Assembly (NCBI GenBank): GCA_028276365.1
Contig: JAPYWL010000022.1
Location: 1-17,704, forward strand
DNA from: Deltaproteobacteria bacterium
Lineage (GTDB): Bacteria > DRYD01
Reading direction: 5' to 3'
DNA length: 17,704 bases
This document shows positions 1 through 17,171 of this stretch, one piece after another (the stretch's first letter is position 1; each line of letters starts with the position of its first letter). The notes beneath the pieces were generated by a model. That model did no database searches. It worked only from the letters and a program-made list of their open reading frames with translations, and was not told the origin of the DNA. The position numbers were made by a program, and so were the translations under genes.

Positions 1-223
1 GTTTAGCTTACCCATAGGGGAATTGAAAGCCTGAGAAGTTCAAAAAATCTTTCAGGGCTGTACCAGTTTAGCTTACCCATAGGGGAATTGAAAGTAGATA
101 TCATTTAGCAATATTCTTGTAAAGTTTGAAAGTTTAGCTTAGATGGGAATTGAAAGATAAATAAATTAGTAAAAGTATTCTATAGACCCAAAAATTCTAG
201 CTTACCCCTAGGGGAATTGAAAT
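1..223 (+). CRISPR. End of a CRISPR array with decaying terminal repeats
   Basis: Four repeat copies are visible. Copies at 1-29 and 66-94 are identical 29-mers: they begin GTTTAGCTTACCC, have a short ATA centre and end GGGGAATTGAAAG. The copy at 132-156 is shortened to 25 nt by loss of bases in the centre. The copy at 195-223 is 29 nt with changes at both ends and a centre reading CCCCTAGGGG. Spacers are 36, 37 and 38 nt (30-65, 95-131, 157-194) and unrelated to each other. The ATTGAAAG end resembles the 5' handle of type I-B-like crRNAs, so the array probably reads left to right and this is its leader-distal end, where repeats usually decay. Leader and cas genes would lie outside the window. 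I saw no match to the spacers elsewhere in the window. Confidence 0.88.
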
Positions 224-489: not shown

Positions 490-564
490 CGGGGACGACG
501 GGACTTGAACCCGCGACCTTTGGCGTGACAGGCCAACGTTCTAACCGTGCTGAACTACGCCCCC
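490..564 (-). tRNA. tRNA-Asp (anticodon GUC)
   Basis: The minus strand folds as a complete cloverleaf. The acceptor is GGGGGCG with CGTCCCC (one G-U pair), discriminator G at 490. The D arm is GTTC/GAAC. The anticodon stem TTGGC/GCCAA encloses loop CTGTCAC, giving anticodon GUC. The T arm is GCGGG with loop TTCAAGT and CCCGT. The 3' CCA is not encoded, so it must be added after 3' processing. The tRNA is followed after 12 nt by the infA start codon, and a perfect TATAAT lies just upstream, so tRNA and infA probably share a transcript. Confidence 0.96.
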
Positions 565-862: not shown

Positions 863-2611
863 ATGATTAACGTAAATAATATAAACTCCTTTAATTTTAA
901 TAATATAAATAATATAAATTTGATTAATTCGGGAATTCAAATTAATAATAATATACAAATTATAAATAATTTTTATGATATAAATTTAATAAGATCAGGA
1001 CTACAATTGCAAAATCAACTAATAAATATCTATAATCAAGCCTTGGGAGCTAATAATGCTATACTTTCATTGGGAAATTCAATGATATTTACTGATAATA
1101 ATAATGAATTAAGACTGATCCTAATGTTATAGTTAAATATACTTCTTAGTTCCTTATATAACTCTCAAAACAACTATAATCCCTATAATTATAATCCTTT
1201 ATATGGTAGTTATCCTCAAAATTATTTAGATCAAAATTATCAAGATTACCAAAATTATTATAATCCTAATTACTATGATAATTATGGTAATTATAATTAC
1301 GATGATTTAAACTATGGTTTCCAATCATCTCAATTTAGTAATAGTGTTAATAATCCGAACACAACACATAATAGTAATGCTCAAAGAGTAGGTGATAGTA
1401 ATGTAAGAAGGGGAGGTAGTAGTAGTGGTGGTAGTGGTAATAGTGTAAGTAACAGAGCTGGTAGTAAGGAAACCAGTGACGAAACTTATTATCATGGAAA
1501 AAGAACAAAAATAGAAGGAAATACATATTATGATAAAGATGGAGATGGACAAAGAATATTATATAAAAGAGGAAATAGTTTTGTTTCTGTGGGAATTGGA
1601 GACAAAGCAGAAGAAGTTGAGAATGGGATTGGAGGAAAAGCAAGAGTATCAGCTAAGGGAACAGTACAAGCAGATGTAGGGAATGGTAGTGGTATTAAAG
1701 TAGAAGGTGAAGCATATATTGAAGGAGGAGTATGGGCAGAAGGTGAAGCTTCATTAGGACGCACAAGACGTGTTAGTAAGGAAGGAAATGATTATATAGT
1801 ATATAAACAGGGGATTTCAGCTAGTGCTGGAGCTGGAGTTTCTGCTGGGGTAAGAGGAGCTGTTAGTGTATATAATGGATATGACTCTATTACTGGAGAA
1901 GTAGACCTTTCTAAAGGTATATCAGGAATGTCAGCTGGTATTGAAGCACAAAGGGGAGCAGCTTTAAATACTAATAACTGGCTATTAGAATTTGGGGGAG
2001 CTTTTGGATTAGATATAGGAGACATTTTGCAATTTATTCCGGTTGCAGGTCCAATAGCTAAAATATTGGAGTTTGGATTTAGAATATCTTTATCAGGTAA
2101 AGTACAATTACATGAAGCAGCTAATCAATCTAAACAAGAAATAAAATCAGAAGCAGATAAGATATTTAATCAAGAATTAAATCAGATGAAACAACAAACA
2201 GTAAACGACTTAAAACAAAATAATAAAGTAAGTAAAAGTGAAATACAAAATAAAGCTCAAGAAATAAAAAATAAAAGAAATGAATTATATAAAAAAGCTT
2301 TACTAAAAGCATGGAATTCCAAACAACATGAAGTAAAACAAAAATTAAAAACTGAAGCTAGAAATAGAATGACTAACATTCTACCTAAATTTGCTAGAGA
2401 ACTTGTAAATAACAGAATCGCTCCATTGATAAATAGCTCATTAAGTTCATTACCAGGATTTGTTAGAAATGGAATTATAAGAGCATTACAAGCAAGCGGC
2501 CAAGTAAATAGTTTTATTGCTAATATGTTAATATTACCTGATTATATAATACTAATGGAAAGAGTTATAAATGAAGTAAAAGTAACTGATTTCTTTAAAG
2601 ATGTAAAATAA
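863..2611 (+). CDS. Unrecognised Asn/Tyr-rich modular protein, frame interrupted by one TAG
   Basis: One reading frame runs for 582 codons and is broken only by TAG at codon 90 (1130-1132). Between that TAG and a GTG at 1589 the frame is open for 152 codons with no ATG, GTG or TTG, yet its composition continues smoothly. I therefore read it as one gene, either carrying a nonsense mutation or using readthrough. Order of regions: Asn/Ile-rich repeats (1-60), a hydrophobic stretch around the TAG, a Tyr/Asn/Pro-rich prion-like tract (about 101-161), a Ser/Gly linker (184-193), a Gly/Ala/Glu/Val-rich part with alternating small residues such as VEGEAYIEGGVWAEGEA (about 243-368), a hydrophobic segment ILQFIPVAGPIAKILEFG (about 388-405), a Lys/Gln/Asn-rich helical part (about 417-510) and a hydrophobic C-terminus. 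No signal peptide or catalytic motif is visible. The Gly/Ala-rich part and hydrophobic segment recall secreted or toxin-like proteins, but I cannot assign a function. Confidence 0.6.
1130..1132 (+). other. In-frame TAG interrupting the gene at 863
   Basis: TAG follows TTA and precedes TTA in a hydrophobic run (LILML, stop, LNILL). TAG is a real terminator elsewhere in the window, at the end of the protein kinase gene (12865-12867), so this is not a wholesale reassignment. The following bases are not a known strong readthrough context. Confidence 0.8.
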
Positions 2612-13775: not shown

Positions 13776-13854
13776 CATAAAGGATTACCTTAAATAAACA
13801 TTGAACTATATATTAGCTATTAAATTATTATTTTAAATTATTAAGGTGATAAAA

Positions 13855-14271
13855 ATGATAACAAATACGCAAGATTTAAAAAAAATCTTAATAAATAAAG
13901 GGATAAAACCTTCTTATATTAGATTAAAAATATTGGAGTACTTAATAACAAAAGAAAATCATCCTACTGTAGATGAAATATATCAAGAACTAAAACAAAT
14001 ATTCCCTACTTTATCTAAAACCACTATCTATTTAAATTTAAACCTATTTGTTAAACACAATATAGTTAAATCTTTTAATATGGATAATAATGAACAAAGA
14101 TTTGATTTTATTAAACAAGAACATATAAATTTCTTTTGTGAAAAATGTAAAAAAGTATATGATATTCCAGTAAATGAAATTAAAATTGAATACCAAAATA
14201 ATGAGCATAAAATAAAAGAAACTGTTTTATATTTAAAAGGTATTTGTAAAGAATGCTTTCAATTCTCCTAA
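13855..14271 (+). CDS. Fur/PerR-family metal-dependent repressor
   Basis: The N-terminal winged helix has HPTVDEIYQEL and the recognition-helix region TLSKTTIYLNLNLF. The C-terminal dimer domain has both structural zinc CXXC pairs (C95/C98 and C131/C134). Of the PerR regulatory metal ligands, H36, D84, H90 and D103 are present, while the position of the second His of the HXH motif is N92. This suggests a PerR-like peroxide or iron sensor with altered metal preference; Fur cannot be excluded. I start at ATG 13855 (138 residues) because AAGGTG six bases before it is a good ribosome binding site; a GTG at 13846 is part of that site. The last codons and the stop (CFQFS) fall inside a CRISPR-repeat-like half unit, so the C-terminus is shaped by the repeat. 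It diverges from rpsB and has no same-strand partner close by. Confidence 0.9.
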   Translation: MITNTQDLKKILINKGIKPSYIRLKILEYLITKENHPTVDEIYQELKQIFPTLSKTTIYLNLNLFVKHNIVKSFNMDNNEQRFDFIKQEHINFFCEKCKKVYDIPVNEIKIEYQNNEHKIKETVLYLKGICKECFQFS

Positions 14272-14319
14272 TTTTCAATTCCTCTAACTTTCAATTCCTT
14301 TAACTTTCAATTCCCCCAT
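14256..14319 (-). repeat. Four tandem 16-bp half copies of the CRISPR repeat
   Basis: Four consecutive 16-bp units (14256, 14272, 14288, 14304) begin CTTTCAATTC or TTTTCAATTC; the first three end CTCCTAA, CTCTAA and CTTTAA. Read on the minus strand each is TTA, a few G/A, then GAATTGAAAG, the 3' half of the repeat at 1-29. The first unit overlaps the end of fur and supplies its TAA. The fourth is the start of the longer copy at 14304-14333. Confidence 0.8.
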
Positions 14320-14333
14320 TTGCTAAGCTAAAC
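14304..14333 (-). repeat. Diverged full-length CRISPR-repeat copy
   Basis: On the minus strand this 30-mer begins GTTTAGCTTAG and ends GGGGGAATTGAAAG, matching the array repeat at both ends with a changed centre. Confidence 0.75.
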
Positions 14334-14350
14334 ATTCATATTGTGGACAA

Positions 14351-14361
14351 GTAAGCTAAAC
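14351..14361 (-). repeat. Truncated CRISPR-repeat copy (5' 11 bases)
   Basis: The minus strand reads GTTTAGCTTAC, exactly the first 11 bases of the array repeat; the rest is missing. It lies between two fuller copies, 17 nt from one and 24 nt from the other. Confidence 0.55.
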
Positions 14362-14385
14362 TTTCTGAAATTTCTTCTATTTTTT

Positions 14386-14414
14386 CTTTCAATTCCCATA
14401 TGGGTAAGCTAAAC
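14386..14414 (-). repeat. Solitary CRISPR-repeat copy, one mismatch
   Basis: The 29-mer is the reverse complement of the array repeat at 1-29 except for one central base (CCATATGGG in place of CCCTATGGG). It is more than 14 kb from the array and in the opposite orientation. Confidence 0.85.
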
Positions 14415-14487
14415 CTAATTTTCCTGGGGGAATCGACAGATTCAGTATTATCAAGCAAAAAGCATAATTTATAAACAAAAAACAAAA

Positions 14488-14520
14488 ATTCAATATTGAC
14501 TTTTGTCAATTTTTTTGAAT
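14488..14520 (+). terminator. Hairpin followed by a T run, probable rho-independent terminator
   Basis: ATTGAC (14495-14500), loop TTTT, GTCAAT (14505-14510), then six more T. Outer arms ATTCAA (14488-14493) and TTGAAT (14515-14520) can extend the stem. It is about 220 nt after fur, the only upstream plus-strand gene. The stem is A/T-heavy, so strength is uncertain. Confidence 0.5.
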
Positions 14521-14539
14521 ACTCAAAACTGATCGACAG

Positions 14540-14606
14540 AAACTAAAAAAATTAAAAATAAAAATTAAAAAATTAAAAAAAACAAAAATTAAACAAAATT
14601 AAAAAA
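14540..14606. repeat. A-rich low-complexity tract
   Basis: The tract is built of repeated AAAAATTAAA-like units, probably from replication slippage. No coding or RNA signal is seen. Confidence 0.6.
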
Positions 14607-14824
14607 TCCTCAAAATCCTTTTATGAAAATAAATTTTATAAAATAAATTACTAAAATCTACTCAAAAATCAAGGCAATCAACTTCAATCGGAGTTATATT
14701 AAAAGTTTTCATTACTAATTTAGATAGTTTCTTAAATAAAACCTGAATCATTCTTGGTATTATCCTCTTTCTTATATTTTAATTAGCAAGGGAAAAATAA
14801 TAAGAAAAAGAATAATAATATTAA

Positions 14825-14860
14825 TCTAAAAAACCAAAAATCTAAAAAAATCTAAAAAAT
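14825..14860 (+). repeat. Short direct repeats TCTAAAAAA before the lipoprotein gene
   Basis: TCTAAAAAA occurs at 14825, 14841 and 14851, ending five bases before the lipoprotein ATG. The leader of this gene is thus A-rich and has no Shine-Dalgarno sequence. Confidence 0.55.
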
Positions 14861-14865
14861 AAAAG

Positions 14866-15576
14866 ATGATTAAAAGAAATTATAATTTCATTACATTAGT
14901 AATTATAATAATAATTTTGTTTTTAAGTTCTTGTGCTACCCCTAACCCAATGCTTAAACCACCAACAATTACTAACAAATTACTAACTATCAGCGTTTAT
15001 TTTAAAAATACTATACAATCTAATTTTTCCTATACTTATAATAATCAAAATTTTAATTATAATTTTTACTGTGCCCTATGTTTTAGATTTGATCAAGATT
15101 TTAATAATTTAAATATAGATAGATGGAGTCATATATATTTTTTTGAAAATGGATTTAAGAGATTTAACCGTATTAATCCTCCTAGTCCCAATACAAGTAC
15201 ACTTGACGAATGGTCATCCATTATTATTGATACTAATTCTAATAAAAATAATAATATACTAAATTTTAACATCCCTATTCCAGATAATATAATAGGTAGC
15301 CCTACCATATATAATTTCATAGTAATAGTATTTTTAAGAGATTTTGAATATAATCAAATGTCAGATAATTTTGGGCAAAACCCCATAGATTACTATGGTA
15401 CAGGAGCTATTCAAAACATAACTATAAATACATCAAATACTAATATAAATCAAACATATGTATTACAAAATGAACAAGAAGGTGATTTAGATAATTCCAA
15501 CTTACCTCCAGGTTTTCCTGATAATTACAAAGATTCCTTAGATATAACTAAAATAGAATATATCATAAGACAATAA
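14866..15576 (+). CDS. Putative lipoprotein of unknown function
   Basis: The 236-residue product starts with a positive N-region (MIKRNYN), a hydrophobic core (FITLVIIIIILF) and a lipobox L20-S21-S22-C23, so it should be lipidated at C23 and anchored outside the inner membrane or in the outer membrane. The mature part begins with a Pro/Thr-rich linker, is rich in Asn, Tyr and Phe with alternating hydrophobic residues suggesting β structure, and ends in an acidic, Pro/Gly-containing tail. I do not recognise the family. No Shine-Dalgarno sequence precedes the ATG; the leader is A-rich. It lies 46 bp upstream of the cation exchanger gene on the same strand and may be co-transcribed with it. Confidence 0.8.
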   Translation: MIKRNYNFITLVIIIIILFLSSCATPNPMLKPPTITNKLLTISVYFKNTIQSNFSYTYNNQNFNYNFYCALCFRFDQDFNNLNIDRWSHIYFFENGFKRFNRINPPSPNTSTLDEWSSIIIDTNSNKNNNILNFNIPIPDNIIGSPTIYNFIVIVFLRDFEYNQMSDNFGQNPIDYYGTGAIQNITINTSNTNINQTYVLQNEQEGDLDNSNLPPGFPDNYKDSLDITKIEYIIRQ

Positions 15577-15622
15577 ATATAAAATATAAAAAAAGTTAAT
15601 CAATAAAAAAGGGGAAATTAAA

Positions 15623-16957
15623 ATGCTAACAAATATCGAAGAAAAAAATGAACACAAATTATCACAAGAATCTAAAAGAAAATATACTAATTTATTAATA
15701 ATGATGTTTTTAGTTTCATTACCTTGGATGATAATAAAATCTTTAACGTTAATAGGGGTATTTAAATGGGATTATGAGAATTATGCTTTAATGAGTGCTA
15801 TAATGACAGGGATAACAATAATAGCTTGCGCATTTATAGTTAGCTGGGCCTCAGAAGTATTACAAGAATACTTACCTCCTAATTTTGTTTTAGCTTTATT
15901 AGCAATAATAAACATATTACCTGAATATGTTGTAGATATTTACTTTACATATATGGCAGGTATAAAAGAAGAATATACACATTATGCAATAAGTAATATG
16001 ACAGGTGCTAATAGGATGCTAATAGGTTTAGTTTGGCCCCTAATTCTAATTATATATTTAATAGCTAAATCCAAAAAATCTCCAAGCCTACCTAACTATA
16101 TCCAACTTGATAAAACAAATATCTTAGAGATTACTTTCTTAATGATATCTACTTTATATTGTTTTACATTACCTTTTAAGGGAAATTTAAATTTAATAGA
16201 TACTTTAATATTGTTTATAATTTTTGGGATATATATATATTTAGCAACTAGAATGGGTAAAAGGGAACCGGAGTTAGAAGGCCCACCATTAATTATTTCA
16301 CAGCTGCCAGAAAAGTTTAAAAAATTTATGATATTTTTTATGTTTTCATTTTCAGGGTTAGGTTTTTTATTAAGTGCAGAGCCTTTTGGAGAAAGCCTAT
16401 TAGTATTAGGTAGCAAAATAGCAACCAATTTTGGGTTTGATGCAGATACTACTAAATTTCTAATGGTTCAATGGATAGCACCTATTGCTTCAGAATCTCC
16501 AGAAATAATTGTAGTTATTATATTTGCCTATAAACTTTTAGCCCCTGACGCTTTCTCTACCGTAGTATCTTCTAAAATAAACCAATGGACTTTATTAGTC
16601 GGATTTATTCCATTAGTTTTTTTTATTTCATTATTAATAAATTCTAAAACAGGAAAACCTTTAATTTTAGATGAATTACAAAAACATGAACTATTATTAA
16701 CTGCAGCTCAAAGCTTATTTGCTTTAGTAATGATATTAGATATGAAATTTAAAATAATAGATGCAATTCTATTATTTATTTTATTTACTACTCAACTAAT
16801 AATTCCTGATATAAGATTACAAGTAAGTATAGCATATATTATATTAAGTTTTATTTTCCTACTAAGGTTAATTACTTCAAAACAAGTTAGAAATACCCTT
16901 AAAGAATCATTTGATTATACTTTACATCAAATTAAAAACTCGGGTAAAGAAAATTAA
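15623..16957 (+). CDS. CaCA-superfamily cation exchanger (Na+/Ca2+ or cation/H+ antiporter)
   Basis: The 444-residue protein is highly hydrophobic, with about ten membrane helices. It shows the two inverted α repeats of the Ca2+/cation antiporter superfamily. The first is ILPEYVVDIYFTYMAG with E101, followed by YAISNMTGANRMLIG; the second is WIAPIASESPEIIVVIIFAYK with E294, followed by VVSSKINQWTLLVG. The two acidic residues in matching places are the expected ion ligands. It should exchange Ca2+ or another cation against Na+ or H+ across the inner membrane; the exact ions cannot be read from sequence. AAAAGGGG eight bases before the ATG fixes the start. It follows the lipoprotein gene by 46 bp and converges on cydB. 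A CRISPR-repeat-like element begins six bases after its stop codon. Confidence 0.88.
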   Translation: MLTNIEEKNEHKLSQESKRKYTNLLIMMFLVSLPWMIIKSLTLIGVFKWDYENYALMSAIMTGITIIACAFIVSWASEVLQEYLPPNFVLALLAIINILPEYVVDIYFTYMAGIKEEYTHYAISNMTGANRMLIGLVWPLILIIYLIAKSKKSPSLPNYIQLDKTNILEITFLMISTLYCFTLPFKGNLNLIDTLILFIIFGIYIYLATRMGKREPELEGPPLIISQLPEKFKKFMIFFMFSFSGLGFLLSAEPFGESLLVLGSKIATNFGFDADTTKFLMVQWIAPIASESPEIIVVIIFAYKLLAPDAFSTVVSSKINQWTLLVGFIPLVFFISLLINSKTGKPLILDELQKHELLLTAAQSLFALVMILDMKFKIIDAILLFILFTTQLIIPDIRLQVSIAYIILSFIFLLRLITSKQVRNTLKESFDYTLHQIKNSGKEN

Positions 16958-16962
16958 ATAAA

Positions 16963-17010
16963 CTTTCAATTCCCCTTCTTTTAATTAATTCCCTTAGGGG
17001 TAAGCTAAAC
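16963..17010 (-). repeat. Solitary CRISPR-repeat element: one half copy plus one full-length copy
   Basis: CTTTCAATTCCCC at 16963-16975 is the complement of the last 13 bases of the array repeat. After six bases a 29-nt copy follows (16982-17010) with centre CCCTTAGGGG and ending GTAAGCTAAAC. It sits between converging genes, starting six bases after the exchanger stop codon. The rest of the gap up to 17171 is A/T-rich without visible features. Confidence 0.8.
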
Positions 17011-17171
17011 TAAGGAAGGATGTATATTTACTCCAATATAATAATTATCTAAAAAAATAAAAAATCATTCATATAAATTTTTAATAAAAAAAATCTGTGG
17101 ATGTACAATAGGGTAATTTTTTTAATAAATATAAAATTCCCTCTTTATCTCAATATAAATTTTATAAATTT

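What the first reader, a model, noticed from the sequence alone, without database searches (positions are those of the whole stretch)
14256..17010. CRISPR-repeat-like elements sit directly after stop codons in a fixed orientation
Three of three strong loci show it: infA (repeat 195-223 ends on the stop codon), fur (unit at 14256 overlaps the stop) and the exchanger (16963, six bases after the stop). In every case the GAATTGAAAG end faces the gene, so the mRNA 3' end carries the repeat's complement. The last two loci are far from the array and have no array-like regular spacing. This looks like dispersal of the repeat as a 3'-end element. Possible roles are terminator, mRNA 3' processing, or pairing with crRNA repeat portions.
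Basis: partly seen in the sequence, partly recalled or inferred. Interest (0 to 1): 0.72.

Follow-up and report, generated by a model that had tools for sequence, protein, structure and literature searches.

The report
Dispersed CRISPR leader-repeat units at gene ends
This bacterium has scattered about twenty short copies of the start of its own CRISPR locus (leader plus one repeat) through its genome, almost always back-to-front against the end of a gene, which suggests that the nucleus of a CRISPR array can itself spread like a small mobile element.

Summary
The 29-mer recurs far outside arrays, but what is dispersed is not the bare repeat: 20 solo copies (19 sites, because two contigs are allelic) carry about 100 nt of CRISPR leader fused to one repeat. 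The same leader heads the true arrays, one of which follows a complete type I-B cas operon. At 16 of 19 sites the repeat's 3' end lies within 60 nt of a convergent stop codon (p about 8e-9). Between codirectional genes all 14 units are antisense (p = 6e-5). Array ends show the same placement, in a sister species too. At a dozen sites the sister's orthologous gene end has no unit, in one case with genes 2 nt apart, so units were inserted or differentially lost. Solos share derived features that the arrays lack (modified leader, 15-nt repeat extension), which points to copy-from-copy spread like a MITE. Two sites have older CRISPR loci in relatives, so array collapse explains some. Terminator and mRNA-processing readings have no support. 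The mobilising enzyme is unknown: no Y1 transposase, reverse transcriptase or target duplication was found. Most likely these are non-autonomous 'CRISPR seeds'. Whether they acquire spacers or make antisense RNA is untested.

The parts
1..223 (+). Distal end of a CRISPR array: repeats 1-29, 66-94, 132-156 (degenerate) and 195-223 (4 differences, centre CCCCTAGGGG). The last base overlaps the stop codon of infA (223-477, -).
14256..14303 (-). Three tandem 16-nt copies of the repeat's 3' half (GGAATTGAAAGTTA-like). They supply the last codons (FQFS) and the stop codon of the Fur-family gene (13846-14271, +).
   Evidence: Fur identity
14304..14333 (-). Degenerate CRISPR repeat (4 edits) of the fur-locus array relic
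14354..14364 (-). Truncated 5' half of a repeat (GTTTAGCTTAC) between the two fur-locus repeats
   Evidence: sequence
14386..14414 (-). CRISPR repeat, 1 mismatch, palindromic centre CCCATATGGG
14415..14690 (-). Upstream part of the long-form CRISPR leader, 75-92% identical to copies at C59, C84, C68, C71 and C72. The repeat-proximal ~100 nt of leader is missing here.
16963..17010 (-). Solo repeat with central and terminal changes plus the shared extension AAGGGGAATTGAAAG. It ends 5 nt after the stop of the Na/Ca-exchanger-family gene (15623-16957, +).
   Evidence: Pfam
17011..17121 (-). CRISPR leader (about 111 nt) of the same solo unit, junction subtype D (TACATCCTTCCTTA)

Best explanation
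The elements are dispersed 'CRISPR seeds': a ~130-nt unit of the repeat-proximal CRISPR leader (~100 nt) plus one repeat, derived from the genome's own type I-B CRISPR locus, which has multiplied as a non-autonomous, MITE-like insertion. Each copy sits antisense, with the repeat's 3' end against the 3' end of a gene. Shown: fixed ends, about 20 copies, orientation and position bias, absence at a dozen orthologous gene ends in a sister species, derived features shared among solos, and true arrays at the same kind of site. Inferred: spread is by copying of the unit through an unidentified trans-acting recombinase (Cas1-Cas2 acting at the repeat-end site, or a transposase missing from the bin). 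Placement at gene ends reflects target choice plus selection, because the repeat complement brings stop codons and spares the upstream gene. Some units nucleate arrays by normal spacer acquisition, while most stay empty, decay or exchange sequence with each other.
For: Leader plus repeat query: 24 full units, and every full-length leader copy runs on to the repeat. Alignment shows common left and right ends and unrelated flanks. Orientation and stop proximity. Empty orthologous sites in G001, including TAAttATG at the C87 site and 10-22 nt intergenic gaps at C72, C106 and C6. The sister has only 5 leader-repeat copies: 4 arrays and 1 relic. Seven solos share the 15-nt extension, and most share CATTAACAG where arrays and relatives have ATCGACAG or ATCGACGG. 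Array-type units form one clade apart from most solos. Array ends at infA, C66 and C72 and in the sister's C22, C16 and C4 arrays also abut convergent stops. A complete I-B cas operon precedes a 32-repeat array.
Against: No target-site duplication. The inverted-repeat-like match of the ends is weak (9-10 of 11, shuffle p 0.003-0.015). No Y1 transposase or reverse transcriptase is encoded in the bin, although the bin is 87% complete. Two sites (fumC and C120) have CRISPR loci or relics at the orthologous place in relatives, so not every solo is a fresh insertion. Some solos have ancestral-type leaders. Two of 19 units do not face a near stop (C1, C124).
Confidence: 0.58

Rival explanations
1. 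The solos are collapsed ancient arrays. Recombination between first and last repeats removed all spacers and left leader plus one repeat at old CRISPR sites.
For: The fumC 3' end carries solo C54a here and an array in G002. The C120 site has degenerate repeats in G001. The fur locus is an evident decayed array. Array ends have the same position and orientation.
Against: About a dozen orthologous sites in the sister show no trace. Seven solos share a repeat extension and most share a derived leader that arrays lack, which independent collapses would not give. It still needs a way to seed about 20 loci.
Confidence: 0.24
2. CreA-like guides: the leader promoter drives a transcript through the repeat, and Cas6 cuts it to give 8-nt-tagged RNA antisense to the neighbouring gene's 3' end, which regulates that gene.
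For: Handle and leader are conserved in solos, a type I-B Cas6 is present, and orientation is nearly always antisense. One-repeat creA genes are known (PMC8501985).
Against: No expression data. The target would be only the unit's own flank, where the repeat itself should block type I interference. CreA repeats degenerate and lack leaders (PMC8501985, PMC9458426), the opposite of this pattern. The neighbouring genes are unrelated, many of them housekeeping genes.
Confidence: 0.1
3. The units are terminators or mRNA 3'-end elements for the upstream gene.
For: Constant position just after stop codons. Several copies have perfect palindromic centres.
Against: No terminator-like site. Neither strand of the unit folds better than shuffles. 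Many units lie between codirectional genes where termination would cut off the next gene. The conserved part includes 100 nt of CRISPR leader, which this idea does not need.
Confidence: 0.05

Closest known systems
CreTA / creA minimal CRISPRs (ectopic repeats; PMC8501985, PMC9458426)
   Same: Ectopic one- or two-repeat CRISPR derivatives in genomes with type I systems, including I-B
   Different: creA repeats are strongly degenerate, lack a leader and are single regulatory loci. Here the leader is retained, repeats are near-consensus, and there are about 20 copies at gene ends.
REP/BIME palindromes and MITEs (general knowledge)
   Same: Short, multi-copy, extragenic, often downstream of stop codons, non-autonomous
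   Different: Sequence is a CRISPR leader plus repeat. No RAYT/Y1 transposase in the bin, no clear terminal inverted repeats, no target duplication.
Multiple CRISPR arrays sharing one leader family, as in many thermophiles (general knowledge)
   Same: Several loci with one leader and repeat family served by one cas operon
   Different: Most loci here have a single repeat and no spacers. They share derived solo-only features and abut convergent stops.
De novo arrays from off-target Cas1-Cas2 integration (general knowledge)
   Same: A new CRISPR locus arises at a new chromosomal site
   Different: Off-target integration copies a spacer and a local pseudo-repeat. It does not carry the leader and repeat along.

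Membership tests
CRISPR array (type I-B) | Two or more repeats separated by spacers of regular length | tested here: not met
   Solo units have one repeat. True arrays in the same genome have 35-40-nt spacers.
CRISPR array (type I-B) | Leader adjoining the first repeat | tested here: met
   the same leader precedes solos and arrays
CRISPR array (type I-B) | Cognate cas operon in the genome | tested here: met
   cas8b-7b-5b-3b-4-6b-2-1
CreA antitoxin guide | Degenerate repeat(s), no leader | tested here: not met
   Leader present and repeats near consensus
CreA antitoxin guide | Spacer-like match to the promoter of a toxin gene | not tested
   No toxin gene was sought
MITE / non-autonomous transposon | Multi-copy unit with fixed ends and unrelated flanks | tested here: met
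MITE / non-autonomous transposon | Terminal inverted repeats | tested here: inconclusive
   9-10 of 11 matches near the ends, shuffle p 0.003-0.015
MITE / non-autonomous transposon | Target-site duplication | tested here: not met
   mean 3.45 against 3.29 in mismatched pairs
REP element mobilised by a RAYT | Y1 transposase in the genome | tested here: not met
   in an 87% complete bin
Intrinsic terminator | Stable GC stem followed by a U tract | tested here: not met

The most novel reading that the evidence does not exclude
A CRISPR leader-repeat unit behaves as a self-contained mobile element that inserts at gene 3' ends in a fixed orientation, possibly by the Cas1-Cas2 integrase cutting at the repeat end, and is the normal way new CRISPR arrays are founded in this lineage.
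Probability: 0.22. Interest if true: 0.88.

Novelty: new variant of a known kind. Interest (0 to 1): 0.63.

Why it matters
How a genome gains additional CRISPR loci with a working leader is poorly understood. Here about twenty leader-repeat units, arrays in similar positions and empty sites in a sister species give a natural series from seed to array to relic. It makes seeding of CRISPR loci, and a possible transposon-like role of the adaptation machinery, directly testable.

Tried and rejected
Strand-biased insertion coupled to replication was rejected: GC skew on the unit strand is mixed. Terminator structure was rejected. Target-site duplication was not found. IS200/605-type Y1 transposase and reverse-transcriptase carriers were not found. 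Carriage by viruses: no exact repeat or leader pattern in viral contigs. Spacers matching unit flanks: only short partial matches of about 18-27 nt. The literature searches found no description of dispersed leader-repeat units, but the library holds only open-licence papers. A covariance model and fold prediction were not used, as the question did not need them.

Full report
Observation. The window is contig C70 of a 1.59-Mb, 124-contig, 87% complete metagenome bin. The repeat GTTTAGCTTACCCATAGGGGAATTGAAAG occurs 105 times with up to 3 mismatches; the reversed control gives none. Most copies are in arrays: about 37 repeats in C72, 32 in C84, 9 in C59, plus short ones in C66 and at the window start. 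Many others are single.

What the unit is. Reading upstream of each solo repeat revealed a shared ~100-nt sequence that is also the leader of the arrays. Used as a query, leader plus repeat gave 24 full copies. Each runs through to the repeat, apart from small end changes. Twenty of these are solos (19 sites, since C16 and C83 are allelic contigs at about 94% identity); the other four are heads of arrays or contig ends. The left end is near (C)AG|AAAAATTA and the right end is GAATTGAAAG. Longer forms carry about 170 nt more leader. Thus infA is an array end, fur is a decayed mini-array with half-repeat expansions and a leader that has lost its proximal part, and the exchanger copy is a solo leader-repeat unit.

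Position and orientation. Of 26 unit or array ends, 24 face a convergent stop and 22 lie within 60 nt, against 52% and 21% for random intergenic positions. For leader-bearing solos alone it is 16 of 19 sites (p about 8e-9). Convergent and divergent contexts say nothing about orientation, so I also tested codirectional pairs alone: 14 of 14 are antisense (p 6e-5). The repeat side is tight (-27 to +13 nt for most), the leader side loose (0 to 463 nt). Where the insertion entered a coding end, the repeat complement supplied the new tail and stop (FQFP*, FQFPYG*, FQFS*). C124 faces a start codon and C1 lies far from any stop.

Comparison with relatives. The same-genus genome G001 is about 80% identical at the DNA level. 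It has a related repeat, four arrays, and five leader-repeat copies in all. Orthologues of 13 faced genes (12 sites) were found in the 1.24 Mb of G001 that I held, with no repeat remnant behind them. The best cases are C87 (next ATG 2 nt after the stop), rodA/C72 array, spoT/C106 and C6/hemE. Two sites behave otherwise: the C120 orthologue has degenerate CRISPR remains nearby, and the fumC end that carries C54a here carries an array in G002. Three G001 array ends abut convergent stops, two of them with half-repeat debris in between, while its type III-associated array faces a cas gene start. One G002 array also faces a start about 210 nt away.

Evolution of the units. Seven solos share a 15-nt extension after the repeat, and most carry CATTAACAG where the arrays have CATCGACAG and relatives have ATCGACGG or CATCGACAG. 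Array-type units form one clade, with C54b and C124 in or next to it. Body and junction subtypes reassort between loci, and the allelic pair C16a/C83a differs mainly in junction and extension, which points to exchange among copies. I infer copy-from-copy spread with later recombination. The leaderless repeat C16b is present in one strain contig and absent in the other.

Mechanism. Cas1 sits just upstream of the C84 leader in a complete I-B operon, so the machinery to turn a seed into an array is present. The right end of the unit coincides with the repeat-spacer junction, one of the two sites that Cas1-Cas2 attacks (established knowledge), but that Cas1-Cas2 moves the unit is only an inference. 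No target duplication, Y1 transposase or reverse transcriptase was found. An imperfect inverted match of the ends is suggestive only.

Function. The terminator reading has no support. The guide-RNA reading is possible but untested. Published ectopic repeats (creA) are degenerate and leaderless (PMC8501985, PMC9458426), unlike these.

Limits. Genes were called by a simple ORF procedure. The bin mixes at least two strains. Only part of the own genome and of G001 was read directly. Empty sites compare species at about 80% identity, so loss in G001 cannot be excluded site by site.

Noticed in passing
window 490-564 (-): tRNA gene beside infA (Rfam RF00005, 69.7 bits).
   Followed up: no
own genome, e.g. 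L040:4205-5731, L031:6860-8392, L042:475-2007: The predicted AAA-ATPase plus PD-(D/E)XK family (PF09820/PF08011) has 32 matches in this 1.6-Mb genome, some near CRISPR units; it rings in only 1 of 14 control genomes, below cut-off.
   Followed up: partly
L035 (C16) and L044 (C83): Two contigs are ~94% identical over 12.6 kb: the bin mixes at least two strains.
   Followed up: partly
L041:21-1316 (C68): A second leader plus repeat followed by a second cas6 copy but without cas1 and cas2.
   Followed up: no
window 14256-14303; L043 2646-2760; L099 about 1420-1510: Tandem half-repeats (CTTTCAATTCC, period about 15-16) accumulate at array ends next to stop codons in both species; origin unknown.
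   Followed up: partly
window 863-2611: Asn/Tyr-rich reading frame 863-1132 stops and a 340-aa frame (1589-2611) follows with no Pfam match; possibly one interrupted gene.
   Followed up: no
window 14690-14773 and G000:C52:37219-37302: An 84-nt stretch upstream of the fur-locus leader recurs at 89% identity on contig C52.
   Followed up: no
L222:4111-5393 (G001): Cluster of degenerate repeats and a decayed leader-repeat unit in the sister species, near the orthologue of the gene faced by C120.
   Followed up: partly
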